From Viola odorata (lineage: Eukaryota; Streptophyta; Magnoliopsida; Malpighiales; Violaceae), in contig OY829539.1 in assembly GCA_963691705.1 (NCBI GenBank), forward strand, positions 39,751,656 to 39,815,655: a DNA stretch of 64,000 bases. Reading direction: 5' to 3'. How positions within the stretch are numbered: the first letter of the stretch is position 1; each line of letters begins with the position of its first letter. Positions 34,135 through 59,625 of this stretch are shown here, in pieces. Under the pieces are notes generated by a model. It had not been told where the DNA came from and did not search any database. It saw nothing but the letters and a program-made list of their open reading frames with translations. The position numbers and the translations under genes were made by a program.

Positions 34135-36680
34135 GACGGGTTCGACATCCCAGTCAGAACCTCTCCTTGCCCCAATGAAGCCAAACTCATTGGCCCGGTT
34201 CAAAGGCATTAGGCTCATTGCCTTTGTTGCACTTGATTGTCTCGCATTCATTCATGCCTTATATATTCTTGCGCACTTGTTCATGAAGTTTTCTCACCTC
34301 GCCTGCCTTACCATCTACACATTTGAAAGAACTCATGGACAAAGGTAAGAGGTCAAGAGGGGTAAAGGGTTTGAACCCGTAGACCACCTCAAAAGGAGAA
34401 AAACCAACTGACGAGTGATAAGCATTATTGTACCCAAATTCAGCAAAAGCAAGACAATCTTCCACTTAATTCTTTAGCAATTAAGACCTGAAGTAGAGAC
34501 CCTAAGGTCCTATTCACCACCTCGGTTTTCCCATCCGTTTGAGGGTGGCAAGTGGTGGAGAAGAGGAGCTTAATGCCTAACTTCGCCCACAATGTTCTCC
34601 AAAAGTGACTTAGAAATTTTGTATCTCGATCACTTACTATACTTTTGGGCATGCCATGAATGCACACAACATGTTAAAAAAACAAATGTGAAATATGTCT
34701 TAGAGCATGGTATAAAATGTGCCATTTTAGAAAATCTAACAACCACAACAAAAATTGAATCATTACCATGCCGAGATCCAGGCAGTCCTAACACGAACTC
34801 CATGGACAAGTCTAGCCACGAGTGTTAGCTCACGGGAAGGAGCATATGGACCGCATGATGCATTGACCTAGATTTAGCTTGTTTACATACAATGCAACAA
34901 TTCACAATCTTAACAACGTCATTTTGCACCGTGGCTAAGATTTTAGAGCATGCAATGTCTTAGTGATGCCAAAATGTGCAGGCAAATCTCCGCAATGAGC
35001 TTCCAAAATAAGCAATTCTCTAATGCTAGAGCATGGAATGCAAAGCCTGTCATACTTGAAAAAAAAACTATCACGGCGAAAGAAATGAAGGTGAGGTCCA
35101 CGGGTGCATGTAACATATATATCACAAAAATCCTCATCTTTTTCATAGAGTGCAATGAGATGTGAAAACCCAAAAAAAATTACGTTTAAGGAATTTAAGA
35201 GAGCGTACCTTTGTGAAAGCGCGTCGGCAACGACGTTCTCCTTGCCTTACTTGTACTTTATCGCGTATGGAAATGTCTCTATGAACTCCATCCACTTTGC
35301 TTGTCCTTGAAGGAATTTCAAAGACAAGTGATACGTGTGGATGATGAATTGTACGGGTAGAAGGTAGTGCTCCCATACCATGAGTGATCTCACCAAAGCA
35401 TACAACTCTTAGTCATATGTGCAGTAGTTGAGCTGCGGGCCACTCAACTTCTCGCTAAAGTAGGCAATCGATCGTCCTTCTTGTGTCAAAATAGCTCCAA
35501 TACCAATGCCACTTGCATCATATTCTAACTCAAATGCTTGGGTGAAGTTGGGAAGGGCCAATACCGGTGAGCTCATAAGCCTTTCCTTCAACTCATTGAA
35601 AGCCATGTTCTTTTTGGTGAGTTCATTCAATTGTGTGACAATGGATGAGAAATTTGGGACAAACAATAGAAGCTTGCTAATCCATGGAAGGACCACACCT
35701 CACTAGCATTTTTATGGTTAGGCCACTCCCTAATTGCTTTCACCTTCTCATAATCAACTTGCACTCCTTCGGTGCTCACTACAAAACTAAGAAAATGCAC
35801 ACGGTCCAAGCAAAATTTACACTTAGCCAATTTAGCATACAATTTGTGTGTGCGTAAGGTGTCAAGAATCGTGTGCAAGTGCAAAACATGATCTTTAAGT
35901 GTGGTACTATACACAAGAATGTCATCAAAATACAAAATAATATATTTTTCAATAAATTCCCTCAACAAAAAATTCATTAATCTCATAAAGGTACTTAGAG
36001 CATTGGATAGAGCGAATGGCATTACTAATCATTCACACAAACCATATTTTATTTTGAATGGCGTCTTCCACTCATCACCTTCAAACATCCTTATTTTGTG
36101 GTAGCCACTCATGAGGTCTATCTTGGAGTACACTCGGTTCCCACTCAATTCATCTAGCATGTCATCTAGGCGCGAAATTGGAAGTCTACAACGCACGGTG
36201 ATTTTATTGATGGCGCGGTAGTCCACACACATGCGCCAAGACCCATCTTTCTTTGGCACTAATAAAATAGGCACGACACAAGGTGACATGCTTTTCCTTA
36301 TGAACCCTTTGCTCAATAGCTCATCAACCTTCCTTTGTAGTTCTTTGGTCTCCTCGGGGTTGCATCGGTATGCTGGCTGGTTTGGTAGGGTTGCGCCGGG
36401 AATTAGATCTATCTTATGTTTAATGCCGCGTGTGGGAGGTAAGGCCATCGACATCTCAGAGGGGAAGACATCATTGTATTCCTACAAAAGCTCAACAATT
36501 TGATTGGGTAGGGAAGAAGGGAGGTTAGTAGAAATATTTAGACAATGTGACTTGTACCGAAGTACAATACACAACTTATTCGCGAGGAGTGCATGCCTCA
36601 CATCCTTTCCTCTCATCATTACACTCAAGTTTTTAGCCTCACCCTCTCTACCATGCTTGCTTTTGTCATGGCGTGTGTTC
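34135..36680 (-). pseudogene. Minus-strand Gypsy RT, RNase H and integrase
   Basis: Reverse transcriptase, right to left: [51 protein letters not shown] and the catalytic block YFDDILVYS near 35911-35937. RNase H follows, with the first catalytic Asp in LEYDASGIGIGAILTQEGRS and then FSEKLSGPQLNY. The integrase zinc finger (about 34850-35060) is badly decayed. The integrase core is recognisable: [13 protein letters not shown] and [19 protein letters not shown] at 34440-34667, then [23 protein letters not shown] at 34259-34465. Multiple frameshifts and stops separate these blocks, so no protein is made. Confidence 0.88.
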
Positions 36681-38634: not shown

Positions 38635-38859
38635 TGATAACAATCAAGACAATCCCAAGGACATTGCTGTAATTATGACCCCTACCGAGACCGGAATCTT
38701 ATAAGCCTATCGGACATCTAAGCTATCGCTACTAAACCGTGAGGTATTTTCTGGGATGGTCGACATCAGCGGGGGGGAGGACTCACGCATCTCTGGACGC
38801 ACGGCATCATCCCATCCCAGGGGACCCATGGAGTTATCGCCCCCGACATCATCATGGGT

Positions 38860-38975
38860 ATCGCCCCCGGTACCCTCCTCAGGTATCGCCCATGACGACA
38901 CCTCAGGCATCGCCCATGACGTCACCTCAGGTATCGCCCATGACGTCATCCCCAGATATCGCCCATGATGTCATC
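38860..38975 (+). promoter_or_regulatory. TATCGCCCATGACGTCA repeat array in U3
   Basis: About four 23-24-bp units contain TATCGCCCATGACGTCA or close variants. TGACG/TGACGTCA is the core bound by plant TGA-type bZIP factors (as-1-like). The array lies 60-170 bp upstream of the TATA box, where enhancer elements are expected. Confidence 0.65.
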
Positions 38976-39031
38976 CAGAGCGGTATCTCCCCTGGATATC
39001 GCTCTCTCCCCGGATATCGCCCCCAGCGGCC

Positions 39032-39039
39032 TATAAATA
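39032..39039 (+). promoter_or_regulatory. TATA box in the Tat 5' LTR
   Basis: TATAAATA follows GCGGCC and is conserved in the 3' LTR. Confidence 0.7.
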
Positions 39040-39248
39040 TTCTCTCATTTTAAAACATCAAGTAAGCCGGAAAAAACTGCCTACCAGACCCTCTGTTATT
39101 TTTGAACTGCTTACTGACTTAAGCATCGGAGTGTCTACGCCGGAGTCCCCCCTCCAGCGCTTTGCAGGTGGATTCGACGTCATCTACAACGCCTCCGACC
39201 AACAGTAGGCATCGTCCCGATCATCTCGAAGGTCGAATCTTATCAAAT

Positions 39249-39266
39249 TGGTGCTTTCATTGAGAG
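39249..39266 (+). promoter_or_regulatory. Probable primer-binding site
   Basis: TGGTGCTTTCATTGAGAG begins three bases after the 5' LTR. The leading TGG would pair with a tRNA CCA end. I recall similar sequences after LTRs of other plant Tat elements but cannot name the tRNA. Confidence 0.5.
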
Positions 39267-39325
39267 GCTTGGTACATTAAGTGAGCGTCCTTAATAACCA
39301 AGCTCTATTTTACCCAGAGATCGGA

Positions 39326-42300
39326 ATGATCATGACTTCTGAATCGGAGCCGATGCAACCCTCATCCTCTAGTCTTCCTTTTTCGATTTGTAGATAGTTA
39401 TTCCCTTTTGCTACTGCTGATCTTTCTGTGACAGCGCAACAAATCAGTTCAGAATCCCCGGATCTGTTGACCAGGTCGGCAGGGGGAACCCTCTCCTCGC
39501 AAACAACCGTTTCGTTATCCCAGATGGCAGGATCTAGCTTTTCTACTCCTCCTCCAAGGGGATTTGTGTTAAAAAGTATAGAACACCCTTTTGCGAGTGA
39601 AATAGCGACCCTTCGTTCTCGGTTGGACTATTTGACTGAAATGGCTGCCAGAATCACACCTGAGATTTCTGGATCGAGTGTCCCTCCCCGTGTCATGTTC
39701 ACGCCGTCTATTGTCACTGAGCGGCCCTTGTCACTGTTGTTACAGGGAAACCTCCAGTTAACTTTACCTACAACAGACCCCCCGATCAATTTTGTGTAAC
39801 TCACTCAAGGACGAGTAGAACCTTATGTGCCGCAGGTACCACAAGGTCCCATCCCTCAGGAGGATCGACACCTCGAGGGGGTCAGGAACCGTTGGGACGG
39901 TCGAAGAGAAGGAGCGAATAGAGATTTCTCTCCTGAGTACAAGGAGAGATCCAGTAGCAGAAGACGTAGAACTCGTTCGCCTAGGAGCCGCAACCGGTCT
40001 CCTAGGCGACATCTTACACCTGAACCGCGAGACCAACGATGTCACGTGGAAATATCTCCCCTGCGCTAGGCGTGTGAAATCCTTGATGACACATCGGGTC
40101 ATCCATTTAGCCGTCGGATAAGACGCCATAAGGTCAGTCGACATGTGAAACTTCCCACTGAGACTTATGACGGCACCAGAGATCCCATTTCCCACGTCAA
40201 TAAGGTGAAGGATTTCGTTCAATTTCAGACTCACAGTGATGCGGCGTTGTGCCAAATATTTTTTATGACATTATCAGGAGTTGCGCGTCTCTGGTTCGAG
40301 GGCCTTCCGAGCGGATCTATTAGCAATTTTGCACAATTGGAATCCAAGTTCCGGAGCAGATTTAGTACTGCGATTCCAATCAGGAAATCCGCCGTCGCGT
40401 TATTTGACATACGTCGAATGCCTCAAGAAACTTTGAAGGACTTTCTTAGTCGATTTGATCTGGAAATGTCACTAACGTCGGGCGTTACCATTGATTTCGC
40501 TATAGAAGCCCTGAAAAGGAACTGCCGTTATGGTAAATTGAAAGATGCACTGATGGTGAACCCTCCAACGACTTTAGACGCATTAAGACTCAAAGCCCAT
40601 AATTACGCGAAAATGGAAGAAGAGGAAAACAGAGATAGAACCTATAACATGCCGCCTGAGACACCTCTGATTCCTAACGCTCCTACAATTACCATTCCTG
40701 ATGACCGCCTCGCCGACGATTATGCTCGGCGGAAAGATCATATTCCCAAGACCTCCAGTGGGCGGAAAGGTAATACTTCGAAGGTAAAGCCTGGTGGTTT
40801 CCCTAATCGGCGTCAAGGAGATCCTTCTAAAGGTCGGATGTACGACCCTGATTTCCCTTCCTTTAATATACCAAGGGCGGAGATTTTAGCGATAGTGGAG
40901 CAGCGAAACCTTCCCATCCGTTACCCTGCGCCTATGAAGCCCGGAGTGCTTCTAGGGAAAAGAGAAAATGCTTATTGCAAATTCCACAAAGCCAGGGGGC
41001 ATTCTACAGAAGTATGCAGAGAATTAAAATCAGCAATAGAACGTTTGGTGGAAGAAGGTTACTTGGGAGAATTCGCAGCCAAAGTAAGAGAAGACGCCAG
41101 AAATAATCCCACGAAAAGGATAGCAGACGACCGACGACTACCCCTTCGCGCCCCACAGAAGGATAATACTCCCGAAGGGAGAGGTGAAGAAGCTTTCACG
41201 GTAGATGACGAGGACTTCCCTATGATTAACATCATAGCGGGAGGGACTCCTTATATAGACGAAGCAGAGCCACTAACGACCGCGTTAGGAGAAAAATGCA
41301 AACGAGATGACATGGTAAAGAAAGGTGAAGCAATAAGCATCCTGGATCGCATGATATTATCCTTCTCAGAAGAGGACGAAAAGGGAGTTGCCTATCCGTA
41401 TAATGACGCATTGGTGGTTACGCCCATCATTGCCAATCACGGAGTCAGAAGAACTCTTATAGATAACGGGAGGGCAGTGAACCTCTTCTCGTTAGAAACG
41501 TACAATCTCATGAAATGACCCGACAACGAGTTAGCACCTTGTAAGAAACCCATAATTGGAGTGGAAAAGGTCCCAATCCCTGTCACAGGGATCACTACTC
41601 TGCCCGTGTACTTCAAAGAAGACACCTCCAAGTGATCAGAGGATCTGTTATTCCTTGTCGTAGACTTAAACTTGCCCTACAATGTCATACTCGGATGACC
41701 TTTTCTCAACCGCTTTGGAGCGGTGATATCTCAGAAGCACCTGAAGATGAAATACCCCTCCTGGGACGGAGTGGTATCGATAAAGGGCAACCAAAAACTG
41801 GCAGCAGAATGTTACCTGCTCATGACTCAAAAGAGTTGCGATAGGTATGTATGTATAACAGCGGACCCATATGAACAGGGTGATGAGAAGTGCGCTCAAC
41901 CTCTGGACAAAATGGTGCCCGTACCGGTGATAGGCATAGAGGAGGCGAGCTTTCTAGTCAGCGAAAAGCTCAGTCCAGAGGAAAGCCTTTAATTGGCCCG
42001 GTTATTGAACAAATATCAAAGAGAGTTCGCATGGAAACCCGCAGACATGCCGGGTATATCGCGCAAAGTAGCCGAACATCGTCTCAACGCTGACCCTAGC
42101 ATCAGGCCGGTCCAGCAAAAGCGACGCGCGTTTTCTACGGAAAAAGCTTTAGCCGTTGATAAAGAAGTGGCGAAACTCCTTGATGCAGGGTTCATCCACG
42201 AAGTTCAATACCCTACGTGGTTAGCCAACCCAGTTCTCATTCCTAAGTCCAACGAAGATTGGCGCATGTGTATTGACTTTACCGATTTAAACGATGCTTG

Positions 42301-45205
42301 CCATACGGATTGCTACCCGCTTCCCCGAATTGACCAACTAGTCGATCAGACTTCCGGGTATGCATACTTAAGCTCACTTGATGCTAACTCCGGATACCAC
42401 CAAATTCCCATGGCCGTTGAAGATGAAGAAAAGACTGCCTTCATCACTCCTAAGGCCACTTACTGTTATACGGCGATGCCGTTCGGGCTAAAAAATGCAG
42501 GGGCGACGTTCCAACGTATGGCAAACAGAATATTCAAAAAGCAGATAGGAAGGAATGTGGAAGCATACGTTGATGATATATTGGTAAAGAGCGCGAACTT
42601 TCAGGATCACCTGCAGGATCTGCAGGAAGTCTTTGATGTGATGAAAAGGCACCGCATGAAGCTGAACCCCCGAAAATGCATGTTTGCGTTTCAAACGGGG
42701 AAATTCCTGGGCTACGTAGTCAGCCGAAAAGGAATCCAACCTAACCCCTCAAAGATTAAAGCCATACAAGACATTATATCTCCAAGAACCGTTAAGGAGG
42801 TACAAAGGCTGACAGGGCGCGTTATCGCTTTAGGGCGATTTATTTCCAAACAAGGCGAGAAGTGCCTCCCTTTCTTCAAAGTCATACGCAAGAAAGCACT
42901 GTTCGGGTGGACCCCGGAATGTGAAGAGGCATTCATTAGCCTAAAAGATTACCTATCGTCTGACCTACTGTTGACCAGGCCGGAACCGGGTGATAATTTA
43001 TATCTATACCTTGGCGCTGCCGATGAAGTGGTTAGTGCCGTCCTCGTTCGCGACGATAGCCACACGCACCGCCCTGTGTATTTTGTAAGTCACGTTCTGA
43101 AAGATGCGGAGCTACGATACGCCTGAATCGAGAAAATAGCGTTTGCACTGATACAAGCTACTCGAAAAATGGGTAGATACTTCCAGTCCTACCCCGTTAT
43201 CGTGCTTACAGACCAACCTCTAAAGAGAATATTTTGAAAGCCTGAGTCCTCAGGAAGAATGTTAATCTGGGCCCTCGAACTCGAGCAATACGGGCAGAGG
43301 TATCAGTCCCGGCCATCCGTGAAGGCTCAAATCCTGGCGGATTTTATAGCGGAATGCACCTTTACAGAAGATCTGTTAACAGATGTACCCGAAGAGGAAT
43401 AGGGCGACGTGGATCTCCCGTTCCCGGAAACTTATACGGACCTCTGGATCATTCATGTAGATGGAGCTAAAAACCAAGAATTGGCTGGAGTAGGAATCTT
43501 CATAAATGGGCCGCACGATATGCGAATACAATACGCCATCCGGATCCTACAACAATTATCCAATAATGCGGTGGAATACGAGGCGTTGCTAGTCGGGCTC
43601 AGGATAGGGAGAAGCCTTTCTTCCAAAGGTAGGCACGACACCGGAAGAACAGGAGACCTGCGTCTAAAAATGTGTGGTGACTCTAAACTAGTAATCGATC
43701 AGGTCTTGGGGCGCTCTCAGGCTCGGGAGCCCATCATGGTCCAGTACCTCTCCAAGGTAATGTGAGAGCTGTTGGAGATAAAGAAAGAAGGCATGCAAGT
43801 CAGCTTTGAGCACATTCCCCGAGAGGACAACGCTGAAGCTGATAGTCTCGCCAAGCTGGCAGCAAACCCGGAAGCGTCCATACCCGAAGGGGTGTATTAC
43901 CGTGAGTTATTTGTACCTTCTTTCATGGAAGAGCAAGCGTCTCTGTGTGTGGAAGAACTGGAGGATGACTGGCGGGTTCCTGTAATCAAATACTTGAAAT
44001 ATGAAGAACTACCTGTGGATATCGCTGAAAAGAAAAGGGTGCTGAAACAGGCAGCTCGCTGAACGTACTATGATGGGGACTTGGTTCGGAGATGTTTTTC
44101 TCACCTAGCCGCCAAATGTATAACGGAGCAAGAAGGTCTTCACACCCTACGCGAAATTCACGAAGGGGTGTGCGGTATGCACGTGTCGGCTGGCACCCTG
44201 GCTGCACAAGTTTTCAGATCTGGATTCTACTGGCCCACCATCCGGAGAGATTGCCACAACTATGTACAGACTTGCCCGAAATGTCAAGAGTTCTCTAAAA
44301 TTTCTCGACGTCCCGCCACCAAAATATCTGAGATTATCGCTCCTTGCCCTTTTGCTAAATGGGGGATCGATATCCTGGGCCCGTTTCCAAAGGCAAGGTC
44401 TCAACTAAAATTTGTAATAGTGGCAGTGGACTACTTTATGAAGTGGGCAGAAGCTGAAGCGGTCGCCAACTTCACGGCAGAAAAAACTTGGCGTTTCTTC
44501 AAACACCAAGTCATCATGAGGTTTGGCGTACCCCGTATCCTAGTCAGCGATAACGGAACACAGTTCACCAACTAATTCTTCAAAGACCAGTGCTCGGAAT
44601 TTGGGATTGAACAGCGATTCTCTTCCGTGGCTCACCCGCAAACCAATGGACAGGCGGAAGTGACCAACCGGAGCATCCTCTGCGGCATTAAGAAAAACCT
44701 GGAGGGGTATAAAAAGAAGTGGGCTGATGAGTTGCCATACGTGATGTGGGCGTATCGCATGACCGTTAAAACCAGTACTGGAGAAACACCTTTCGCATTG
44801 GCCTTCGGGACCAAAGCTGTTACGTCGGTAGAAATCGGTACCATGAGCCTGCGAGTGGCTCACTTTCGAGAAGAGCTGAATGAGGAAAGGTTACGAGCTA
44901 ACCTTGACGCGTTACCGGAGGTCCGAGAAGAAACCCTCCTGAAAACGCAACATTACAAGCGAAAGATGGCCCGTTATCATAACAGGCGCGTCAAAGAATG
45001 ATTGTTAAAGGCAGGCGACTTGGTGCTTAGAGACAAGCGAGCGACTGGTCAACGTGTAGGGAAGCTTAGTACAAACTGGGATGGGCCGTATCGCGTTACC
45101 CGCGTTATCGAAAAAGGAGCCTATCATCTGGAGACACTCGATGGTACTCCCTTATCTAACTCTTGGAACATCGCTTGTTTGAAATTATATTATCCTAGAA
45201 GTTGA
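39326..45205 (+). pseudogene. Tat gag-pol, one frame of 1960 codons with 14 internal stops
   Basis: From ATG 39326 to TGA 45203-45205 the whole polyprotein stays in one frame. Order: N-terminal gag with an Arg/Ser-rich stretch (about 190-250), retrotransposon gag domain (about 275-430), a zinc-knuckle-like CKFHKARGHSTEVC (about 550), protease with LIDNG (about 712), RT with MCIDFTDLNDAC, SSLDANSGYHQ and YVDDILVKS (about 1080), a first RNase H (LGAADEVVSAVLV), a second archaeal-type RNase H (HVDGAKN, EYEA, GDSKL, NAEADSLAKL), and integrase (zinc finger to CPKCQ, WGIDILGPFP, LVSDNGTQF, HPQTNGQAEVTNRS). Internal stops are at 39395, 39797, 40067, 41516, 41633, 41696, 41990, 43124, 43235, 43400, 43763, 44060, 44573 and 44999; eight are TGA. 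No frameshift was found. Confidence 0.93.
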
Positions 45206-45295
45206 TTTTATCTGCACCTTTGACTGATGCCAACCCTAACCTTAGCTAACGCTCGGTGAGAGAGCATTCTTGGGTGTTTGTGGTTGCTTTTGTGC

Positions 45296-45775
45296 AGATA
45301 AAAAAGGGGGATCCTGGGAGTGAAAAGTCCTATCCTTGTGATGGCCGGTCCTGATTAGACGACTCACTAAGTGAGGGCACGACCCAGCATGCCTTGAACT
45401 AGCGTTGGGATTGAAAGATCCCTAGCGCTCCCGGGAGTGAAAAGTCCTATCCTTATGATGGCCGGTCCTGATCAGATGGCTCACTAAGTGAGGGCACTAC
45501 CCGGAATCCTTGGGAGTGAAAAGTCCTTTTCTTGTACTGACTGTTCTCGTGGAGACGACCCATCAAGACAAGGCACGCCCCAAGGAAATAGTAACTCCGT
45601 GCTAGAAACGAAAAGCCCTACCTTAGTGACCGGACTAGTGTAGTCGGTTCATCAAGTGAGGGCATGATTCTAGACGCGAGGACAACGCCTGAAGGTGAAA
45701 AGTCCTATCCTTGTGACGGTCTGTCCTGATCCGATGGCTCACTAAGATGAGGCACTTTCTAGGCCGATCGTGGAA
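45296..45775 (+). repeat. Degenerate tandem repeat downstream of pol
   Basis: About five units of 80-120 bp share GGGAGTGAAAAGTCCTATCC, GGCCGGTCCTGAT and CACTAAGTGAGGGCA, starting near 45316, 45433, 45512, 45604 and 45691. A purine tract AAAAAAGGGGGATCC precedes them. Tandem repeats in the 3' untranslated part of Tat elements are known in relatives such as Ogre and are a source of satellites. Confidence 0.8.
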
Positions 45776-45779
45776 AAAT

Positions 45780-46370
45780 GGAAACGCAAAGAATCACGAA
45801 ATCTCAACTAGTAGCTAGATGTGTAATCCCTAGCGAAGTACAGAGCTGATAGAAAAAGCGATTTACGCGGTTTCCGTACTAACGCCCTATGACGGCAGTG
45901 GAAAGGCTCCTACGGGTAATTACTGTCTCTTGTAACCCGTTATGCTACTAATGGTTTACAATTAGAAATGTGCAGAATACTTTTCAAGCAGCGGAAAGAT
46001 TGACGATCACGTAAGAGGCGATATTATGAGGCTCGCCGGGAAAACCAACCCGATACTGACCTCAGTGATTTCTGTTGATGAAACACTAGGAGCCTGCTCG
46101 AGAAAGTAAACACATTATGTTATCGAGGCGACAATGGCGCCAAGGGAGTTTTAAAAGGTGAAAACTAAAGGAAAGGAAAGACAGCGATAAGGATATAAAT
46201 TGTTTGAACATATGAAAATGCCTTTGAAGGGTCACAAGTTTTAAGGCCAAAACAATAACACCACGGAGACAAAAAACGAAAAGCCTGGCAACTCCCGATA
46301 GCTACGGAAGAGGCGGAGAAGCGTTAGGATGCGTCAGCCCTCGGGGTTCCTCCGTTTCCAACCCTCTGCC
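45780..46370. other. Non-coding stretch between repeats and antisense genes
   Basis: No open gene. It would contain the 3' UTR of the antisense gene ending at 46371. Confidence 0.4.
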
Positions 46371-48618
46371 TTAGCATTGGCGAAAACCCGCTTCATTGAG
46401 GTCGGCAGACTTCTGTTTGAAAGCCCTCGTGACCTCCTCACCTTTATACGCATCCACTCCATGGACCTCCTCGAAGCAATTAACCAAGATAGTGGTAGTC
46501 CGCTCGATATGCCACAGGCACTTATCGGCTGACTCCTCTTCCAGAGCGGTTTTCCTTTCCTCCAAGGCAGCTTTCTCCCTTGCCAAGGCTGACTTCTCTT
46601 CCTCCAGCAACTTCTTCTCATTTCGCTCCCGCGAAAGTTCAGACAGGGAGGTGGTAAGAGAAGCAGCCTGACACTGCGCGTGCTCTGTCTAGTAATGGAA
46701 CTTCAGAAAATTGGGGAAGAGGCTAGAGCGCAGCGAATTCGCCTTGTCATCATCAACCTCAGAGAGGAAAGCTTCCCGATCGGCCGCGGACGATAATATC
46801 TGGGCAGCCAATAAAGCGGAAACCTCATCCGAGCCATTGCCCCTAATAGCCGCTAAGCCTGTATTACGAAAATCATACAAGCCAACTTGGTGAGTCACAG
46901 TGCCGGACTCGCCCATTGGACTTAGATCCGCAGCAAAATTGAAGGCGGTGGCCCCTTCGCCAGAACGCTGCGACAAGGGAATGCTCGAAGGGACAAATGC
47001 CAGGGGAATGAGGGGGTGAACCTGTGTAGAAGGGCCCCCTTGGACGATATAGGAACTGTGGGGATGGTAGCCCGAAAAGTCATGTAAACCCTCTTGATAG
47101 TCCAAGTTAGGACCATATGAGTGAACAGGCCCACCAAAGGAATTGGGCGAAGCCCCGAAAGACTCAGTCGTACCCATGTTTGCCATGAACTCAGAGGGGT
47201 GATTCTGGCGAACGTCCAAAGAAACGAAGGCGCTGTCAGGTTGCACTTCCGTCGCAGCGATGGTAGAGGATAAGTTTCCACCCTCACCCTCCAGCCGAGG
47301 TCTCTTCTTGGAACCACCCAGCACATAGCCCATGTCCATATCGCCTATGGGAGAGGCAGAAGTAGAAGCAACAATAGTATCCTACAAAGAACCCGGTATA
47401 AGACGCAAATAAGAGAAATAGATGAAATAACGACAGACATCAATATACAGCGTATCGCGGCCAAAAAGCACACTCACAACAGCAGTGTTAAGAGGAGGCG
47501 CTTCCGAAGAAGTTGCCACGTCCGGAGAAGGAGTGAGAACGGTAACACTTCTCGTTCTTTTCTTCTTTTTTCCTTTGGTAAGGGCCTTAGGGACTTTAGA
47601 AGAAGATGGCTGAGCAGGAGGGGCAGCGACGGTCACGATGGGGATACCTGAAGGGATGTCGGTATTTCCCTCACCAGCTGAGGAAGAGGATACTTGAGCA
47701 AGGCTCACAGAGGCAGCAGGTAGTACAGTTGGGTTATCAGTAGCTCCCGTGGAGGTGGCCCTCTCTTTTTCTTCTCTCTCCTAGGCCCTTTTCAGTCTTC
47801 TCCTAACGCTTTCAAGCTTGTAATTGGGATCCATCGCTGCATGATAATAAAATAACGTTAGTATTAGTATCAGCGGTAATAAGGAAGGAAGCGATACGAC
47901 ACTCACGTCTAACGTAGTCCTTGATATCAGCCCCGCATGCTAGATAACGGATGTGAACGCTGATTTCCAGTTGAAGCAATTTGTCTAACCAGCCTTGTTC
48001 CCGCTGAGGAAGGCTCTCCGGCCGGCCCCAGACGTTATCTTTGACGTCTTGGTTAAACCCAGATCGCCACTAGGAACTAGGAGCTTCTGGAAGATTTATC
48101 ACAAAGAACTCCTTTTTCCAAGCCTCGACGGAAGACTCGATGTGGAGGAGTTTCCAAGTAAAAGACTTGAGGGAATCATCATCGTATCGGGGCGATATCG
48201 TTATCACACCCCGACACTTCATCAGCTTAAAAACCGACTTAAGCAACAAAAGAGAAGTGGAAGTAATCCCCTTATATTTACAAAGTTCCAGAAAGGCACA
48301 AACACAGCAATATGCATCTAGGGCTAATTGGACGAGATTCAAATCACAGGCAACAAGCAATTGTTTTATGAAAGGGTCGATGGGAAGCCGGAAACCATAA
48401 CGGAACATTTGTGTGTACAGAACCCTACGCTTGCCCGTCAAAACGCTATTCAAGCGTATCGACTCAGGGGCAACGGTGGCCTTATAACCGTCAGGGATAA
48501 CAGCATTATGTGTGGCTAAATGCTCATTGAGAGCGATTTCAGAGGTGATACTGCTAACCGTAATATCCATCTTTTTCTCATCGGCGGACTTCGACTCAGG
48601 GCGGCGAGTCTTGGCCAT
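46371..48618 (-). pseudogene. Antisense Tat gene, copy 2 (PF04195-like), three exons
   Basis: I join 48618-47907, 47836-47478 and 47381-46371 at GT-AG sites; phases agree and the chain is 694 codons. Three TAG codons break it (codons 183, 256 and 588). The N-terminal domain (RYGFRLPIDPFIKQLL, then DLNLVQ, ISPRYDD, EAWKKEFFVINLP, then WRSGFNQD) matches the paralogue at 51365-49152 in order and spacing and resembles the Pfam 'putative gypsy type transposon' domain PF04195. A Ser/Pro and basic linker (KGKKKKRTRS) follows, then a low-complexity middle, then a predicted coiled coil (KKLLEEEKSALAREKAAL). A TATAAAAA box lies 34 nt before the ATG. The function of this family is unknown. Confidence 0.75.
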
Positions 48619-48651
48619 GGCAGAAAAGTAAGAAAAAGAAATAAGTGTTGG

Positions 48652-48659
48652 TTTTTATA
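48652..48659 (-). promoter_or_regulatory. TATA box of antisense gene copy 2
   Basis: TATAAAAA on the minus strand, 34 nt upstream of the ATG at 48618. Confidence 0.55.
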
Positions 48660-49151
48660 ACCCTAGTGGTCAAAGGAAACGACGGTCGCTGCAGTCGTTG
48701 CGTGAGAGCATCACAAGGAACATACTCAAGCAATGAGTACAATCCTAGAGAAGCGCGACAGCGCTTCGATTCTGTTAAAATTCTAGAGCACGCTAGCCCG
48801 TGGCATCATAAAAAATGGACACGTGTGTCTGCGCTATCACAACTTTCCTCTCATATTAATAAGGGGATCGTGAACATTAAATGCACTGAAAAGCATAAAT
48901 GATTTTCTGGAATAAGACGAGCGATATTGCAACAATGGAGATAATGCAGAATGGCGTTAATCGAGCCGGCGGCTTTCGAGATAATGCAGGAAAGTGAAAT
49001 GAAGATCAGTTATTATATAAAATAAAGTACAGATATCGTTGCGCGATAAGGTGTTATTACAAGACAGAAAAAGTAAATAAAGAGGAAAATCCTCTAAAGG
49101 GTCAGCCTTGACCATTCATTGGTCGGCACGGATATCGCAGCCACCCTTCCC

Positions 49152-51365
49152 CTACTCCTCTCTGAAAGAAAGAAGATCTCCCTCGCTTTCGCTTAAATCC
49201 TTTATCTTCTTGGAGGCGTAATCAGCCAACTTAGATGGGTCAACAGTTCCCTGGCGATGGAGATCCGTAAATCCGGCGATACAGACTTCCAGGATCTTGT
49301 CTTTCCACCCGGCTATCTTCGAGGGTACCTTGGCCAAATCCACGTCACGGGACGATATCTCTTCACGTAGGAAAGAGTTTCTTTTGTCGGCCGCCACCAA
49401 TTCCGCCTCCAGCAGTTCTATCTTAGCCTTTCCTTTTGACTTTTCTCGTGCGAGCTCGGTACGACACTCAATCAACTCTGCCCGGGTTCGATCTTGAAGC
49501 TTTGACAGCTCTGTTACCTTCGCCAAAGCGGCGTCTAGTTGTTCTTTCGAACCGAGAGAGCGCCGAACTTTGTCGCTCTGATCCTCAAGAAAATAGTACA
49601 GCTCGCGGAAGCTGGCCAACATGTCATTCAGAAGGCGTGAGTGCTGAAATTCAGGGGGATGTCGCAGGAACTCTTCCTTGTCCTTCGAAGAACTAAACAT
49701 CTGGCCCACTATAGAACCTACTGGCTCGTCTCGCGATAGCGGATCCGATATCCCTAAAGCGCGAAGCCCATTAGTCCCAAAAGATGACAGATCCAGCTGG
49801 TATGTGACATTTCCTTGAGGACTTTGAGGGGAAAGATTGGCGATATAGGGAGGAGGATAACTTTTTGCGGAATTACCAATGCCCGAAATGGAAGAAAGGA
49901 ATAAGGGCTGAGGTTTCCTCGGGGAAGGTTCAGGAGGAACACTTGGATTCGAAACTGGCATGGTCACATCCGGAATACAGGAAGAGATCGGAGAACCAGG
50001 GCCACCAGGAGGCAAGGGTGAATCCACCGCCGCTGAAACCTCATTAGCTTTGGAAGGAATGACAGAAGACAGCTTGACAACCTCCGCTACTTGCGAGGTA
50101 CTCGCGACATGAGAAGTGTCAACCTCCGCAGTAGAAACTGCTTTAACTTCCCTCAAGGGAGGAATCGGTGGTCCAGTTTTCTCTTTCCGGATTCTCTTTC
50201 AGAGACGCTCCGTCTCGACAGCCATCTCTTCGCTATCGTCCTCGGTTGACTCCGCCGCGGAGTCATTTTTTCTCGCCCTAAGCTTAACTCGTTGGGCAAG
50301 GGTAGCGTGATGTAGTTCGGAAACGACATCTATACTCTCGCTATCGCTGTCAACTATTCCAGACGCAGAACGACTCGGAGTCACTCCCTTACCCCGAGGG
50401 GGCAACCAATTCTTAAGAAAGCGAGAAGATCGAGTGGAAGCACTGCGTGTTGCGACGGTCTTAGCTCTCCTTCCCCTCGGCGGAATAGTCGGAAGGCTGG
50501 AACTTTTAGGCGGTGGAGAAGGAGGTAACGTCTGAAGTGGCACCACGTTTAGAGGAGTGTTATTCCCCCCGGAGGAACGACCCCCAGTGCTACCTGCCAG
50601 CGAAGCATGTTAATGCAGCATGCAAATTAAAGCGATAACATGGCAAAAGAAAAACTCACCAACGACACACTCTTTCAAGGGCCTGAACCGAGCAAATTCC
50701 CGAATGCGGAAAGGCCCTTCTATTTCTAGTAGGGCGGTAACATAGGACACATTAATGCTAGACAGCACTTCTGGTTTTTTCCAAGCGGCGCTGGTAATCT
50801 CTCGGTTAAAACCCCCGCGCCACCAGTGGGACGGCAGGCGAAGGGTGAAGAAGCCATTTTTCCAGTTGACCACGTTGTCCTCAAAACCTTGAAAGTTCTG
50901 CCAGAAAAATTGTACGATGGCGTCATTCCATCTCGGGGTGATATCTACCAAGCAGTCGCGACAGCTCAAGCTGAAAAATGTGCGGAACATATCGAGGGAT
51001 GGAGTGAAAATATGCTTCATCTCGCATGACCGAAGAAAGGCATAAATCCCACACCAGGAAGGCGGAGTTATTTGTACGGGATTGAGATCGTAATGGTTTA
51101 GCAGCTTCATCAGAGAAGTATGGATTGGGAGATGAAATCCGTAGAGGAACATCTTGAAATAAACCAGCCGGAACGTTCCCCACATGGCATCATGAAGTCG
51201 AATATCCTTCATAGGGATATAAGGGCGGCAACCCAAGGGGAAGGTGATACCGTTCTCCTCTAATTCTGCCCTCAAAACTTCATTACAATCAAAAATACTA
51301 CGAGCTCTTCTAGCCTCGAGATCTATGGGATTTTCGGCACTCGCAGAGGCTTTAATATGAGACAT
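49152..51365 (-). pseudogene. Antisense Tat gene, copy 1 (PF04195-like), two exons
   Basis: Exons 51365-50660 and 50593-49152 join at G|GTGAGT...CAG with correct phase, giving 715 residues with a single in-frame TGA (50201-50199, codon 367) where ERL*KRIRK implies a former CGA Arg. The N-terminal domain has YGFHLPIHTSLMKLLNHYDL, VQITPPSWCGIYAFL, DITPRWNDA, then NWKNGFFTLRLP and WWRGGFNRE. This resembles PF04195 as found in antisense ORFs of Tat elements. The middle is Ser/Pro-rich with acidic SDSES and TEDDSEE patches. The C-terminal 150 residues form a likely coiled coil (ELIECRTELAREKSK, then KIELLEAELVAADKRN). Apart from one stop it is intact, better preserved than gag-pol. Its role in the element is unknown; coiled coil and acidic regions hint at protein binding. 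Confidence 0.78.
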
Positions 51366-51557
51366 AAGGGACCGGAAAAATAAAACTACAATGAGAGAGG
51401 AACAGAATAACTGGAACGAAAAAGCCAGTAAACAGGCCGTCGGCGCCGGCGAGCAATTGCAGGAACTTCTCTTGAGCAGAAAGAAGCACAGGAGAAAGAG
51501 AAAGTGTGAAAAATCTCAAAATATTGGCAAAAGTAATAAAAGAGAATAACGGTTCCC

Positions 51558-51564
51558 TTATAAA
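51558..51564 (-). promoter_or_regulatory. TATA-like box of antisense gene copy 1
   Basis: CCTTTATAAGG on the minus strand about 190 nt upstream of ATG 51365; weaker placement than for the other antisense genes. Confidence 0.35.
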
Positions 51565-51838
51565 GGTCAAACTTGAAGAAGAGACAACTTGTAAAAGTGA
51601 AACACGTGCGGAGCAGAAAGCGACGCGTGGACAGTCATTTATGTCTTTGGGAGAAGACAGTTACTGATAAGAAACCGAAAGACGATTGCACCCAGCAACA
51701 GATATCCCTCCGCGCCAACCCTTAATGTTTAAAGAAATGACACGAGAAGGCGATAGGAGGACAAAAGGAAAATGAAGCGTTATTTTATTCATTTTTTAAA
51801 AGCCATACGGCATCTACAAAGAGGCAAGACCCGCTAAG

Positions 51839-52261
51839 CTAATCACCCTCAGACCAAGAGATACCATAACAATAAACTACATCGTCATCTGAGAACGATA
51901 GCTCCCTACTGACGGGAGGAAAAGGCTCATCAACCCTCTTTCCTATGCGTATCATTGATCGGCTGGACTCCTCCTCAATGGCTGACGTCACCGCTTCCAT
52001 GTCCACGCTGGCAGGAAGAGCCATTTTTGGCGAATCGTGAGGAAGAAGAGATGGTTCATTCCCCCTTTGAACAGAAGGGGCGAAAGAATTGGAAAGCATT
52101 TCAGACACCTTTAAGGCATTTTTCCTCAGCCTCTTGTGACGCCATCGGTGGACGTACGGCCTCCATGGAGGCGACGGAGGAGGATTGTCTGAATCTGGCG
52201 AGGTCGGAGGAGTTGGCGGAGAATCCCGCGCAGCAGTGTCCAAAAAATAAGAATCGGCCAT
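51839..52261 (-). CDS. Antisense Tat small protein B, Pro-rich and basic
   Basis: This is an intact frame of 140 residues. The N-terminus is Pro/Ser/Asp-rich (SPPTPPTSPDSDNPPPSPPW), followed by the basic cluster HRWRHKRLRK, which could be a nuclear localisation signal, then an acidic C-terminus (SFSDDDVVY). TATTTAAT lies 70 nt upstream (52338-52331). It matches no family I know. It lies between the copy 1 gene and small protein A in the same orientation. Confidence 0.55.
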   Translation of the reverse strand: MADSYFLDTAARDSPPTPPTSPDSDNPPPSPPWRPYVHRWRHKRLRKNALKVSEMLSNSFAPSVQRGNEPSLLPHDSPKMALPASVDMEAVTSAIEEESSRSMIRIGKRVDEPFPPVSRELSFSDDDVVYCYGISWSEGD

Positions 52262-52330
52262 GAGCTCCCAGGCAACCTGTCAAGAGGAAAAATAAGCAAG
52301 AAGATGAATGGAAAAATGGAGTGGGATCCC

Positions 52331-52338
52331 ATTAAATA
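52331..52338 (-). promoter_or_regulatory. TATA-like box of antisense gene B
   Basis: TATTTAAT on the minus strand, 70 nt upstream of ATG 52261. Confidence 0.4.
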
Positions 52339-52659
52339 GCCAAAAAAGGGGGAGAAGTTTTTGATCATCCGGCGCGACTCTTGAAAACTGACACACGTAC
52401 AACCTGTAGTGCAAATCTAGATTTGCAGTCACGCCTGTTGAAATCTCCACAGATCGAGGAAAACTGAAACTTTACCTAATCAGTTGACACTGAAATAGCG
52501 GCGCAAAATTAATGCAGAACGGTTAGCGAGGAAACCGTCGTGAAAAGGCCGCCCAATGACTAACTCATTTTCAGTTGGGCTGAGGATGCCTCCAATCGGA
52601 AAAGGACAAAGGGCACATTGAAAAAGAAGAACAGTTACAAAGGGCATAATAAAAACTGT

Positions 52660-53127
52660 TTATTTATTATGGCCTAACGGCCGGAAAGTACAGCTGCATA
52701 AAAAAAAAAAAGAGGAAAGAGAAAAAAGGCTCAAAGGGAGCCTCCGCCTTGAGGCGTCAGAACCAGCATCCTCGGGTATGTCGGGAATGTCTCTCAGGGA
52801 GTCCATGACTAGAGTGAGGTCAGCAGAGGTGACCCTCATCCCCTTCAAGCAGCACCCCAGCATGTCCTTGCGTTGCTGCAGCATGGCGATCACCACTTGA
52901 ATCCGAGCGATGGAGGTGGCCAGCTTTGACACGCTCTCTAAAGGACTGAAATCCTCCAGAGATGTAGCTCCCAGCCTAGAATGGAGTGGGGTCAGCATCC
53001 CTTGCAACTCCAAGATGTCCTCGGAGGTCTTGACCAGCATGTTCTCCAAGAACCCGACGTCACCATCATTGAGGTTCTTGAGAGTATGGCCTTTGGAAAG
53101 GAGAAATTTTTTGGTCAAATGATCCAT
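52660..53127 (-). CDS. Antisense Tat small protein A, helical
   Basis: This is an intact frame of 155 residues with a TATAAAT box 57 nt before the ATG (53190-53184). It is predicted helical; segments VGFLENMLVKTSEDILELQG and ARIQVVIAMLQQRKDML have coiled-coil-like spacing. The last 25 residues are hydrophobic and low-complexity and may be a read-out beyond the original end. The C-terminal half resembles the 120-residue protein at 12425-12787. Unknown function. Confidence 0.55.
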   Translation of the reverse strand: MDHLTKKFLLSKGHTLKNLNDGDVGFLENMLVKTSEDILELQGMLTPLHSRLGATSLEDFSPLESVSKLATSIARIQVVIAMLQQRKDMLGCCLKGMRVTSADLTLVMDSLRDIPDIPEDAGSDASRRRLPLSLFSLSSFFFLCSCTFRPLGHNK

Positions 53128-53183
53128 GATGTGGATTGCAAGAGAAAAAAGATAAGATGAACTTGAGTGAAGAAAGCTCTCAG

Positions 53184-53190
53184 ATTTATA
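53184..53190 (-). promoter_or_regulatory. TATA box of antisense gene A
   Basis: TATAAAT on the minus strand, 57 nt upstream of ATG 53127. Confidence 0.5.
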
Positions 53191-54025
53191 GGCTCCGAGA
53201 AATGGGCCTTTGGAAAGAGGAGGTCCTCAAAAGACGAGCCGCCCCGTTACCATCAAAGACTGATGGACCTGAGGCGGGAACGAGGATCGATGTCTGTATG
53301 CTGCTAATGATACAGGCACTCGAGAGGAGTATGAGCTAGAATCCTAGAAAACGCGAAGTAGCGCGATATTACGGGTAGCCATGACGTAAAAGCAGTACGA
53401 TTGTAGGTGTCCATAGTGTAAGGCCGCGTCGATATCGCAGGTAGCTCCTGGCAGTGTAAAGCCTCACCGGTATCGCGGGTATCTGGTGGTATAAAGCCTC
53501 ATAAATCATAGACATCCGATGGCGTAAAACCGGGTAAATATCGCTGACTCCATGAGCAGAAAGGAAAGAAAGAACCCGCATGTTCTCAAAATCCCTGTAA
53601 GTATAAAGTTTACTAATATCTCCGTAGAATGCCTACCTCCTCTCCGTGTTTGCAGTTCGCCCGACATGCCGATGGACCTGGAACGTATGCGAACGTAACC
53701 CAACGGTATGAACCTGGTCGCAGTCCGCGGCAACGTCAATAGTAGTCCGTCAGCATCAATAACTTTCCTACGGCACAAACGAGTTTACAACCTTCTAAGC
53801 ACTACTGATGGCCCAGACCTATTAATACCTCTAGGCGAAAATGACATCCTAATGGTTCTGGACGAGTTAGCGGCGTCTCTCGCTGATATCGAAAGAGACA
53901 AAGAAGCTCGGAGATTCCGTAAATATATCGCCATAAGGAGGAAATGACCCTCACCTAAGATACCCGACATGGACAGGGAATGACAGCCCTTGGTAAACAC
54001 CCAGGCTCATTTTCAGTTGGGTTTA
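53191..54025. other. Spacer between antisense cassette and 3' LTR
   Basis: An 80-codon plus-strand frame at 53708-53947 is open but has no recognised motif. No classical polypurine tract precedes the 3' LTR; instead CTCATTTTCAGTTGGG is found there and again at 52564. Confidence 0.4.
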
Positions 54026-54612
54026 TGATAACAATCAAGACAATCCCAAGGACATTGCTGTAGTTATGACCCCTGCCGAGGGCGGAATCCTATAAGCCTA
54101 TCGGACATCTAAGTTATCGCTACTAGACCGTGAGGTCTTTTCTGGGATGGTCGACATCAGCGGGGGAGAGGACTCACGCGTCTCTGGACGCACGGCATCA
54201 TCCCATCCCAAGGGACCCATGGAGTTATCACCCTCGACATCATCATGGGTATCGCCCCTGGCACCCTCCTCAGGTATCGCCCATGACGTCACCTCAGGTA
54301 TCGCCCATGACATCATCCCCAAATATCGCCCATGACGTCATCCAGAGCGGTATCTCCCCTGGATATCGCTCTCTCCCTGGATATCGCCCCCAGCGGCCTA
54401 TAAATATTCTCTCATTTTAAAACATCAAGTAAGCCGGAAAAAACTGCCTACCAGACCCTCTGCTATTTTTGAACTGCTTACTGACTTAAGCATCGGAGTG
54501 TCTACGCCGGAGTCCCCCCTCCGGCGCTTTGTAGGTGGATTCGACGTCATCTACAACGCCTCCGACCAACAGTAGACATCGTCCCGATCATCTCGAAGGT
54601 CGAATCTTATCA
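54026..54612 (+). repeat. 3' LTR of the Tat-type element
   Basis: 587 bp with the same ends as the 5' LTR, the TATA box conserved near 54400, and three rather than four TGACGTCA-type units. Confidence 0.93.
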
Positions 54613-58026: not shown

Positions 58027-58245
58027 TGATATGATCCGGCTTAGGGTGAGTAGGTCGAAAGATATATGAAGCTTGAGAGGATCTAACTTGAGAGTTTACT
58101 AGACAAACAACAACACAATGATCAGCACAAATAAAAGAAGACGAAGGTACGGACATGCGGTAGGGAGGAAACACACAGACAAGAGAAAGAATAACGTTAC
58201 AGATGGAGGTACGGGATGGAAGCGACGGAAGGATGAGCACAAGGA
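58027..58245 (-). repeat. Truncated 5' LTR of minus-strand Gypsy
   Basis: Plus-strand TGATATGATCCGGC onward matches 26185-26400 of the other LTR, then stops abruptly where a palindrome begins. About 1.1 kb of the expected LTR is missing. Confidence 0.8.
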
Positions 58246-58553
58246 TGATGAAGGGAAGGGAGAAAGGGAAAAGGAAAAGAAAAAGAAAAGAAAGAGAAAA
58301 AAAGAAAAAAAGGCTAGAAAAGAAAAAGAAAGAAAGAAAGAAAGAAATTAAGGAGTAAGAAAATAAGAAATGAAAATGCTACAAAAAATTTGAATGCAAA
58401 AAATTTAATTTTTTTGCAGCATTTTCATTTCTTATTTTCTTACTCCTTAATTTCTTTCTTTCTTTCTTTCTTTCTTTTTCTTTTCCAACCTTTTTTTTTC
58501 TCTTTCTTTTCTTTTTCTTTTCCTTTTCTCTTTCTCCCTTCCCTTCATCATCC
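58242..58553. repeat. Large imperfect palindrome, arms about 138 bp
   Basis: A polypurine left arm (58242-58380) is the inverse of a polypyrimidine right arm (58418-58553), separated by 37 bp. Part of the arm occurs a third time at about 59330-59392. Opposing ORFs here are artefacts of the purine/pyrimidine tracts. Confidence 0.9.
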
Positions 58554-58639
58554 TCTTCTTTTCTTTCTTTCTTTCTTATTTCTTATTTTCTTATCATTAA
58601 TTTCTTTCATTTTCAGCATTTAATAAACTCAAAAAATCC

Positions 58640-58990
58640 AAAAAAAAATGCATCTAAACCACAAAATAAATAATGCAGAGTATAATAAAAATAAAAAATT
58701 AATCAATTAACCCACATCTAAACCACAAAATCAAAAATGCAGAGGATAGCAAAAATCAAAAATTAATCAATTAACACACATCTAAACCACAAAATCAAAA
58801 ACATAATCATAAACACAATCAGATCTGACCATGAAATCCCCCTCCTCAAACCCAGCCAAGCCAACCCTCTCGGCTCTCAACAGCACATCACTGTCGTCCT
58901 TGTCGCCACAAACCATCAAATTTGACCGTGAAATCCCCCTTCTCAAACCCAGCAAAAACCAACCCTCTCGGCTCTCAACCGTACATCACT
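58640..58990. repeat. Short direct repeats inside the MULE right half
   Basis: Two copies of a 70-75-bp unit contain AATTAATCAATTAAC and CACATCTAAACCACAAAATC. Two copies of a roughly 107-bp unit follow, containing GAAATCCCCC and AACCCTCTCGGCTCTCAAC. Confidence 0.75.
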
Positions 58991-59625
58991 GCCGCTCTCC
59001 CTCACTCCCTATCCATTACCGTCGTTGTGCCCCCGCTCTCCCTCACTCCGATCTGCCTCGCCGCTCTCTCCATCTCCAATCCAATCACCCATCCCTGATC
59101 CAAACCAAATTAAAAAAAAAAAAGAAGAAATAAAAGGAACAGAGAAGGGAATAGAAGAGAAAGGAGAGTGCAGAGTAGAGAATAGAAAGAGGAAAAGAAA
59201 GAAAAAGAGAAAAAAAAGAAGTTTTAGGCTACGGCCCAAGGAAAGGAAAAAAAGGAAAAATGGAAGAAAAGGAAAGAAATGAAAAAAAGATGAGAGGAAG
59301 AAGACAGAGAGTGAGGAAGAAGATGAGGAAAGGAAGAAAGAAAGAAAGAAATTAAGGAGTAAGAAAATAAGAAATGAAAATGCTGTAAAAAATTTAGCAA
59401 ACCCCAAAAATTAATTCAGCTATCAACCGGGAAAGAAAAGGCAACAGGGAGTGAGAGGTCACTTTGGACGGACATGAAAGTTGACTAACAGAGGGACGTG
59501 CATTTGCAATTGACCAGTAGTTCAGGGGGGACTATTTGAATTTTTATAGTACAGGGGAGAAGTCTGTTTTTTTTAAAAGTACAGGGGGCCTTCATGCAAT
59601 AAACCCAATATTATAAAATAAAATT

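What the first reader, a model, noticed from the sequence alone, without database searches (positions are those of the whole stretch)
46371..53190. Four-gene antisense cassette in a Tat-type retrotransposon
About 6.8 kb on the strand opposite gag-pol encodes two roughly 700-residue spliced proteins and two small proteins (155 and 140 residues), all in one orientation. Antisense or additional ORFs are known in Tat-lineage elements, but usually as one gene. A cassette this large amounts to a second genome on the reverse strand. Its frames are better preserved than expected for junk: one stop in 715 codons for copy 1, and none in either small gene.
Basis: partly seen in the sequence, partly recalled or inferred. 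Interest (0 to 1): 0.88.

Follow-up and report, generated by a model that had tools for sequence, protein, structure and literature searches.

The report
Retrotransposon with four antisense genes
A plant jumping gene carries, on the strand opposite its replication genes, four extra genes with promoter-like boxes of their own, and selection has kept all four as proteins, one of them about as strictly as a part of the element's integrase.

Summary
The window has a 15,978-bp Retand-like (Tat clade) retrotransposon, LTRs 38635-39245 and 54026-54612. Between pol and the 3' LTR lie four genes antisense to gag-pol, in transcription order D, C, A, B. A and B are ancient paralogues with the Transposase_28 (TRP28) domain; C and D match no known family. 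The three predicted introns are conserved GT-AG introns. Sibling copies and more diverged elements of the same genome show protein-level selection: dN/dS against the most diverged one is D 0.06, A 0.15-0.24, B 0.16-0.19, C 0.20, integrase C-terminus 0.05. Each gene has a TATA-type box at a near-fixed distance. Corrections: D is 125 residues in the family (the window copy lost its stop); B is broken in the window copy. Antisense TRP28 genes are already a known hallmark of Retand elements, and maize Grande has an antisense gene with its own promoter. The TRP28 pair plus two small conserved genes I did not find described; two published surveys used length cut-offs that pass over C and D. Function is inferred: nuclear trans-acting accessory proteins, perhaps anti-silencing. 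New variant of a known kind.

The parts
38635..39245 (+). 5' LTR
   Evidence: LTR pair, 23 mismatches in 587 aligned bases plus a 24-bp gap; TG...CA ends; flanking 5 bp match the other side at 4 of 5
40070..41515 (+). gag frame
   Evidence: PF03732, 38.2 bits
41993..43123 (+). reverse transcriptase and RNase H frame
   Evidence: PF00078, PF17919
43403..43762 (+). second RNase H-like domain between RNase H and integrase
   Evidence: PF13456, 22.8 bits, cut-off 21.6
44063..45204 (+). integrase, interrupted by stops in this copy
   Evidence: PF17921, PF00665; weak PF24626 at the end
45312..45765 (.). four diverged 79-bp direct repeats after pol
   Evidence: the repeat finder D4, 68-90% to the reference copy; Tandem Repeats Finder lists no array here
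52753..53127 (-). gene D, 125 codons in the family; the window copy reads on to 52660
   Evidence: pN/pS 0.21 in 21 copies; dN/dS 0.06 vs L054; open in 17 of 19 copies
53185..53190 (-). TATA-type box of D
   Evidence: at -63; -56 to -63 in 6 of 6 elements
51839..52261 (-). gene C, 140 codons
   Evidence: pN/pS 0.46; dN/dS 0.20 vs L054
52332..52338 (-). TATA-type box of C
   Evidence: at -77; -73 to -79 in 8 of 9
50660..51365 (-). gene A exon 1 with TRP28 domain
   Evidence: PF04195, 44.4 bits, cut-off 26.2; dN/dS 0.15
50594..50659 (-). intron of A
   Evidence: GT-AG in 21 of 21 copies
49152..50593 (-). gene A exon 2: linker, second domain, coiled coil
   Evidence: similar to B exon 3, E 1.6e-8; dN/dS 0.24
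51557..51563 (-). TATA-type box of A
   Evidence: at -198; -194 to -198 in 7 of 9
47907..48618 (-). gene B exon 1, diverged TRP28 domain
   Evidence: 31% to A exon 1 over 175 aa, E 3e-27; 20.1 bits here, below the cut-off, 34.4 bits in L054
47478..47836 (-). gene B exon 2, linker
   Evidence: pN/pS 0.81 within the family, not different from intergenic; dN/dS 0.19 vs L054
46371..47381 (-). gene B exon 3: second domain and coiled coil
   Evidence: pN/pS 0.42 and 0.36 for its tail; dN/dS 0.19 and 0.16
48654..48659 (-). TATA-type box of B
   Evidence: at -41 in the window; -175 to -177 in 4 of 4 other elements
54026..54612 (+). 3' LTR

Best explanation
This is an accessory gene module of a Retand-like retrotransposon: four separate transcription units (D, C, A, B) on the strand opposite gag-pol, each with its own core promoter in the integrated DNA copy and each selected for its protein. 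Shown by sequence: order, frames, splice sites, promoter-like boxes, selection. Inferred: A and B are paralogous nuclear proteins (TRP28 domain, linker, second domain, coiled coil) that pair through their coiled coils and bind the element's own DNA; C is a small nuclear partner; D a small helical adaptor; together they act in trans on copies of the element, perhaps keeping them transcribable against silencing. Inferred too: antisense placement lets the module keep introns and promoters, since the sense genomic RNA that is reverse-transcribed cannot be spliced at them. The confidence is for a coding module with an accessory trans-acting role; the anti-silencing step alone I put near 0.3.
For: Siblings: pN/pS D 0.21, B exon 1 0.36, B exon 3 0.42, A exon 1 0.41, C 0.46 against 0.64 for intergenic stretches and 0.36 for RT. 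More diverged element L054: dN/dS D 0.06 (0.02-0.11), A 0.15 and 0.24, B 0.16-0.19, C 0.20, integrase C-terminus 0.05. Order D-C-A-B in L054, L056, L057, L058. Coding signal of D ends at the family stop codon. D open in 17 of 19 copies. Splice sites and TATA-type boxes kept in siblings and other elements. A related antisense gene, Grande gene23, is transcribed from its own promoter and its product is nuclear, as PMC7264820 reports.
Against: No transcript or protein data. Within the family A exon 2 (bootstrap P 0.07) and B exon 2 (0.86) are not distinguishable from intergenic, and C is borderline (0.02); codon-position bias is not significant for A (0.07) or C (0.19); C against closer elements is only 0.39-0.59. 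Single intergenic frames reach 0.48, and the mirror frame on the plus strand is as low as the coding frame for C. The three intergenic frames overlap, so that interval is too narrow. TATA words were chosen after inspection. No step of the mechanism (binding, pairing, nuclear action) was tested; the A/B model was unusable.
Confidence: 0.7

Rival explanations
1. Same coding module, but the proteins serve the replication cycle: nuclear entry of the pre-integration complex or choice of integration site.
For: PMC7264820 discusses this role for antisense proteins; D is about as constrained as the integrase C-terminus.
Against: Nothing here favours it over regulation; the genes have their own promoter-like boxes rather than being part of the sense mRNA.
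Confidence: 0.22
2. The antisense RNA, not the proteins, is what matters: it forms double-stranded RNA with genomic RNA and tunes silencing.
For: The cassette is antisense to the genomic RNA; PMC7264820 leaves this possibility open.
Against: Selection follows codons and reading frame in all four genes against L054, splice sites are kept, and the signal of D stops at its stop codon.
Confidence: 0.04
3. The block is another mobile element or host gene cluster inserted in antisense in one element.
For: C and D have no relatives found outside; L055, a more distant element, has one TRP28 gene and no C or D hit in the 9 kb fetched.
Against: 20 of 20 siblings hold the block in part or whole, and four more diverged elements keep the order. 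A very old insertion or gene gain cannot be excluded as the origin of C and D.
Confidence: 0.03
4. Chance or decaying open frames without function.
For: Most copies carry stops or frameshifts in A and B.
Against: 9 frames of at least 130 codons against 0.91 expected; dN/dS 0.06-0.24.
Confidence: 0.01

Closest known systems
Retand lineage with antisense TRP28 ORFs (PMC11963269; text parts 1-3 of 5 read, passages)
   Same: Tat-clade gypsy element, long pol-3'LTR region, antisense ORFs there, TRP28 domain, repeats near pol
   Different: Here two TRP28 paralogues plus two small conserved genes; pol-3'LTR 8.8 kb against 2.9-6.6 kb in the survey, which counted ORFs of 600 bp or more (shorter ones only if they hold TRP28)
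Maize Grande gene23 (Gomez-Orte 2013, not read; as reported in PMC7264820)
   Same: Antisense gene downstream of pol with its own promoter; nuclear product
   Different: Described there as one gene; homology to A-D not tested here
Plant eORF-3'R class of PMC6317226 (passages)
   Same: Extra ORFs, Transposase_28 in 23% of Retand elements, second RNase H between RNase H and integrase
   Different: Cut-off of 250 codons for extra ORFs, so C and D fall below it
VANC anti-silencing proteins of VANDAL transposons (PMC10398659, PMC5735166; start of abstracts in a listing only)
   Same: Model for what sequence-specific proteins encoded by an element may do
   Different: Analogy only; no homology tested

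Membership tests
Tat clade (aRH) | additional RNase H domain; between RNase H and integrase in Ogre and Retand (PMC6317226) | tested here: met
   PF13456 at 43403-43762, between RT/RNase H and integrase, 22.8 bits over a cut-off of 21.6
Retand lineage | antisense ORFs with TRP28 between pol and the 3' LTR | tested here: met
   PF04195 in A, 44.4 bits; B over the cut-off only in L054
Retand lineage | long internal region | tested here: met
   internal region 39246-54025, 14,780 bp from LTR ends, against 7.4-12.9 kb in the survey
Retand lineage | 5-bp target site duplication | tested here: inconclusive
   flanks agree at 4 of 5 bases
Retand lineage | position in the RT tree | not tested
   no reference RT set of named lineages at hand; the RT search lists plant proteins without lineage
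TRP28 protein family (PF04195) | domain score over the curated cut-off | tested here: met
   A 44.4 bits; B 20.1 bits in the window (below) but 34.4 in L054
Grande gene23-like antisense gene | own promoter | tested here: inconclusive
   TATA-type boxes at conserved distances, no transcript data
Grande gene23-like antisense gene | nuclear protein | not testable with these tools
   basic clusters seen by eye only
VANC-type anti-silencing factor | sequence-specific binding and loss of methylation on the element | not testable with these tools
   analogy only

The most novel reading that the evidence does not exclude
Some plant LTR retrotransposons carry a retrovirus-like accessory gene set of four independently promoted antisense genes, including two protein families overlooked because they fall below survey length cut-offs. 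The 125-residue protein D is as indispensable to the element as integrase and is a new kind of retroelement accessory factor, for example an adaptor that, with a heteromeric TRP28-A/TRP28-B complex, keeps methylated copies transcribable.
Probability: 0.3. Interest if true: 0.8.

Novelty: new variant of a known kind. Interest (0 to 1): 0.58.

Why it matters
Antisense genes in Retand elements are widespread and their function is unknown. This module splits the question into testable parts: an ancient TRP28 duplication, two small partners, a protein (D) under integrase-like constraint with no known relative, and promoter positions that can be tested. It also suggests why such genes sit antisense: introns and promoters can persist through retrotransposition. 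If general, annotation of plant retrotransposons misses small conserved genes.

Tried and rejected
Chance ORFs: rejected. RNA-only function: disfavoured by frame-specific selection. An alternative acceptor for B exon 2 at a recurrent in-frame stop: dropped, the frame would not fit; the stop is in 5 of 21 copies and in L056 and L057; my pattern did not find the place in L054 and L058. Homologue searches: D (given as the 155-codon frame) none of 62 candidates, A exon 1 frame none of 252, although the same database holds plant RTs; weak evidence of absence, since these proteins diverge fast and small ORFs are rarely annotated. IMG/VR scans with A/B, D and RT: no relative, and the failed RT scan shows that collection to be unsuited. 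PDB by sequence: none for the A/B profile or for D of L054. AlphaFold: D a low-confidence helical hairpin (mean pLDDT 56.8), A/B unusable (34.1), so no fold search was run. Rfam and tRNA scans of the window: nothing. Two scripts ended in error and were corrected and rerun (74 as 75, 76 as 78).
Full report
WHAT IS THERE. The window lies in a 699-Mb genome held as 26 contigs. The element spans 38635-54612 (15,978 bp). Its LTRs differ by 21 transitions and 2 transversions in 587 aligned bases plus a 24-bp gap: K2P 0.041, about 1.6-3.1 million years at two assumed rates. Ends are TG...CA; the 5-bp flanks agree at 4 of 5 bases. On the plus strand come gag (PF03732), RT (PF00078), RNase H, a second RNase H-like domain (PF13456) and integrase (PF17921, PF00665), with several stops in pol in this copy. 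After pol and four diverged 79-bp repeats the rest up to the 3' LTR, 8.8 kb counted from the end of pol at 45204, has no sense frame over 125 codons in the part examined (46371-53227).

THE ANTISENSE GENES. On the minus strand, in transcription order: D (ATG at 53127), C (52261), A (51365, one intron), B (48618, two introns). The minus strand of 46371-53227 holds 9 frames of at least 130 codons against 0.91 expected, maximum 4 in 500 shuffles; one of the 9 overlaps B in another frame. A exon 1 carries TRP28 (PF04195, 44.4 bits, cut-off 26.2). B exon 1 is a diverged copy (31% over 175 residues, E 3e-27): 20.1 bits here, below the cut-off, but 34.4 bits in L054. A and B also share a second domain (E 1.6e-8), while their coiled-coil parts match only weakly (E 0.1). 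C and D match nothing in Pfam at the thresholds used; D of L054 matches no PDB sequence, and the protein search with D found nothing.

SIBLINGS. A 1-kb probe from gene A gave 40 scored copies, the window's own included, the others at 95-97%. I fetched 20 of the 39 others. Over these 21 copies pN/pS is: D (125 codons) 0.21 (0.14-0.32), B exon 1 0.36, B exon 3 0.42, B tail 0.36, A exon 1 0.41, C 0.46, A exon 2 0.54, B exon 2 0.81; intergenic stretches pooled 0.64 (0.57-0.73), an interval that is too narrow because three overlapping frames were pooled. The bootstrap chance of reaching the intergenic value is below 0.005 for D, A exon 1, B exon 1, B exon 3 and B tail, 0.02 for C, 0.07 for A exon 2, 0.86 for B exon 2. 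RT (window plus the 14 of 20 siblings that matched) gives 0.36. The predicted frame has the lowest pN/pS of the three minus frames for A exon 1, A exon 2, C, D, B exon 1 and B exon 3, not for B exon 2; the in-register frame on the plus strand is close to it (for C 0.454 against 0.458) but full of stops, and single intergenic frames go down to 0.48. Variable columns by codon position are 26, 22, 46 in D (P 0.005), and favour position 3 in B exon 1 (P 0.008) and B exon 3 (P 4e-5); A exons have P 0.07, C 0.19, B exon 2 0.77, intergenic stretches 0.6-0.9. Open copies (no stop, no frameshift): D125 17 of 19, C 11 of 20, B exon 2 11 of 19, B exon 1 7 of 20, A exon 1 6 of 20, A exon 2 5 of 21, B tail 4 of 14, B exon 3 4 of 19; RT 4 of 15 over the part covered.

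TWO CORRECTIONS. D has a stop at codon 126 in all 18 siblings that cover it and in L053, L054, L056, L057 and L058. The window copy lost it, hence the 155-codon frame; beyond it there is no coding signal (pN/pS 0.68; no position bias). B in the window copy has three internal stops and lacks two stretches, upstream of its ATG and in its coiled coil, that the 20 siblings have (106-134 and 65-110 bp as aligned).

OTHER ELEMENTS IN THE SAME GENOME. A PF04195 search gave 11,413 candidates; the 150 scored passed the cut-off; none of 14 control genomes rang. I fetched six 9-kb regions chosen from that list. L054, L056, L057 and L058 carry D-C-A-B in that order, with integrase on the other strand where it falls within the piece (L054, L057, L058). 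L056 and L057 are close enough to be subfamilies of the window's family; L054 is clearly more distant (about 70-75% nucleotide identity over the cassette). L053 has D and a local duplication of C with the first part of A. L055 is more distant still (RT and integrase 67-70%), has a single TRP28 gene about 36% identical to both A and B, and no hit to C or D in the 9 kb fetched. Window against L054 (dS 0.68-1.56, the higher values near saturation): dN/dS D 0.06 (0.02-0.11), A exon 1 0.15 (0.09-0.22), A exon 2 0.24 (0.18-0.31), B exon 1 0.17, exon 2 0.19 (query with some intron sequence), exon 3 0.19, tail 0.16, C 0.20 (0.11-0.32), integrase C-terminus (69 codons) 0.05 (0.01-0.13). Over all elements compared: D 0.06-0.15 (5), A exon 1 0.15-0.22 (8), B exon 1 0.15-0.35 (4), C 0.20-0.59 (8). 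So D, A and B are firmly constrained, C more loosely.

FOUR PROMOTER-LIKE BOXES. A TATA-type word lies upstream of each ATG at near-constant distance: D TATAAA at -56 to -63 (6 of 6), C TATTTAA at -73 to -79 (8 of 9, not L052), A TTATAAG at -194 to -198 (7 of 9, not L052 or L056), B TATAAA at -175 to -177 (4 of 4 others) and -41 in the window, whose missing stretch lies between box and ATG. In L056 the codon at the projected start of D is not ATG, and in L053 the match to C starts at residue 59. In the 6.95-kb cassette the four boxes are among six such words on the minus strand. The words were chosen after inspection, so the positional conservation is the evidence, not the count. The A intron keeps donor and acceptor in 7 of 8 other loci (not L053); B donor 1 and the last acceptor are kept in 4 of 4.

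HOW IT PROBABLY WORKS. Shown: protein-level selection, separate promoter-like boxes, conserved introns. Inferred: transcription of the integrated copy by host RNA polymerase II, splicing of A and B, nuclear action in trans. Genomic RNA is of the opposite sense and cannot lose these introns by splicing, so antisense placement preserves introns and internal promoters through retrotransposition. A, B and C contain basic clusters that look like nuclear localisation signals (by eye, untested). PMC7264820 reports that the Grande gene23 product is nuclear and made from its own promoter. I favour trans-acting regulation, perhaps anti-silencing as with VANC proteins (listing only), over help to the pre-integration complex; the present data do not separate the two.

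KNOWN AND NEW. The Retand survey states TRP28 in 97% of clusters and tabulates 63 clusters with pol-3'LTR regions of 2.9-6.6 kb (PMC11963269). A second survey finds Transposase_28 in 23% of Retand elements, with a 250-codon cut-off for extra ORFs (PMC6317226, passages). C and D fall below both cut-offs. Searches listed no description that I recognised of paired TRP28 genes or of small conserved antisense genes; figures and supplements were not available to me, so published maps may show two TRP28 ORFs in one element, and Steinbauerova 2011 and Gomez-Orte 2013 were not read. Verdict: new variant of a known kind, with one unusually constrained protein of no known family.

Noticed in passing
window 35627-36481 (-) and 29460-30515 (+): Fragments of other gypsy-type elements: RT-like and integrase-like, 27-34% identical to this element's pol.
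   Followed up: no
window 58241-59396: Long pyrimidine/purine-rich inverted repeats, arms of 41-131 nt, one pair 98% complementary.
   Followed up: no
window 47783 (gene B exon 2): The same in-frame stop recurs in 5 of 21 copies and in L056 and L057, as if this codon were a mutation hotspot.
   Followed up: partly
window about 52566 and 54007: A short shared stretch lies downstream of gene D and just before the 3' LTR, where no clear polypurine tract is seen (by eye).
   Followed up: no
L053:1934-5545: Local tandem duplication of gene C with the first part of gene A, about 2.2 kb per unit.
   Followed up: no
L055:2429-5021: A more distant element with a single TRP28 gene about 36% identical to both A and B; it may show the state before the A/B duplication, not resolved by a tree.
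   Followed up: partly
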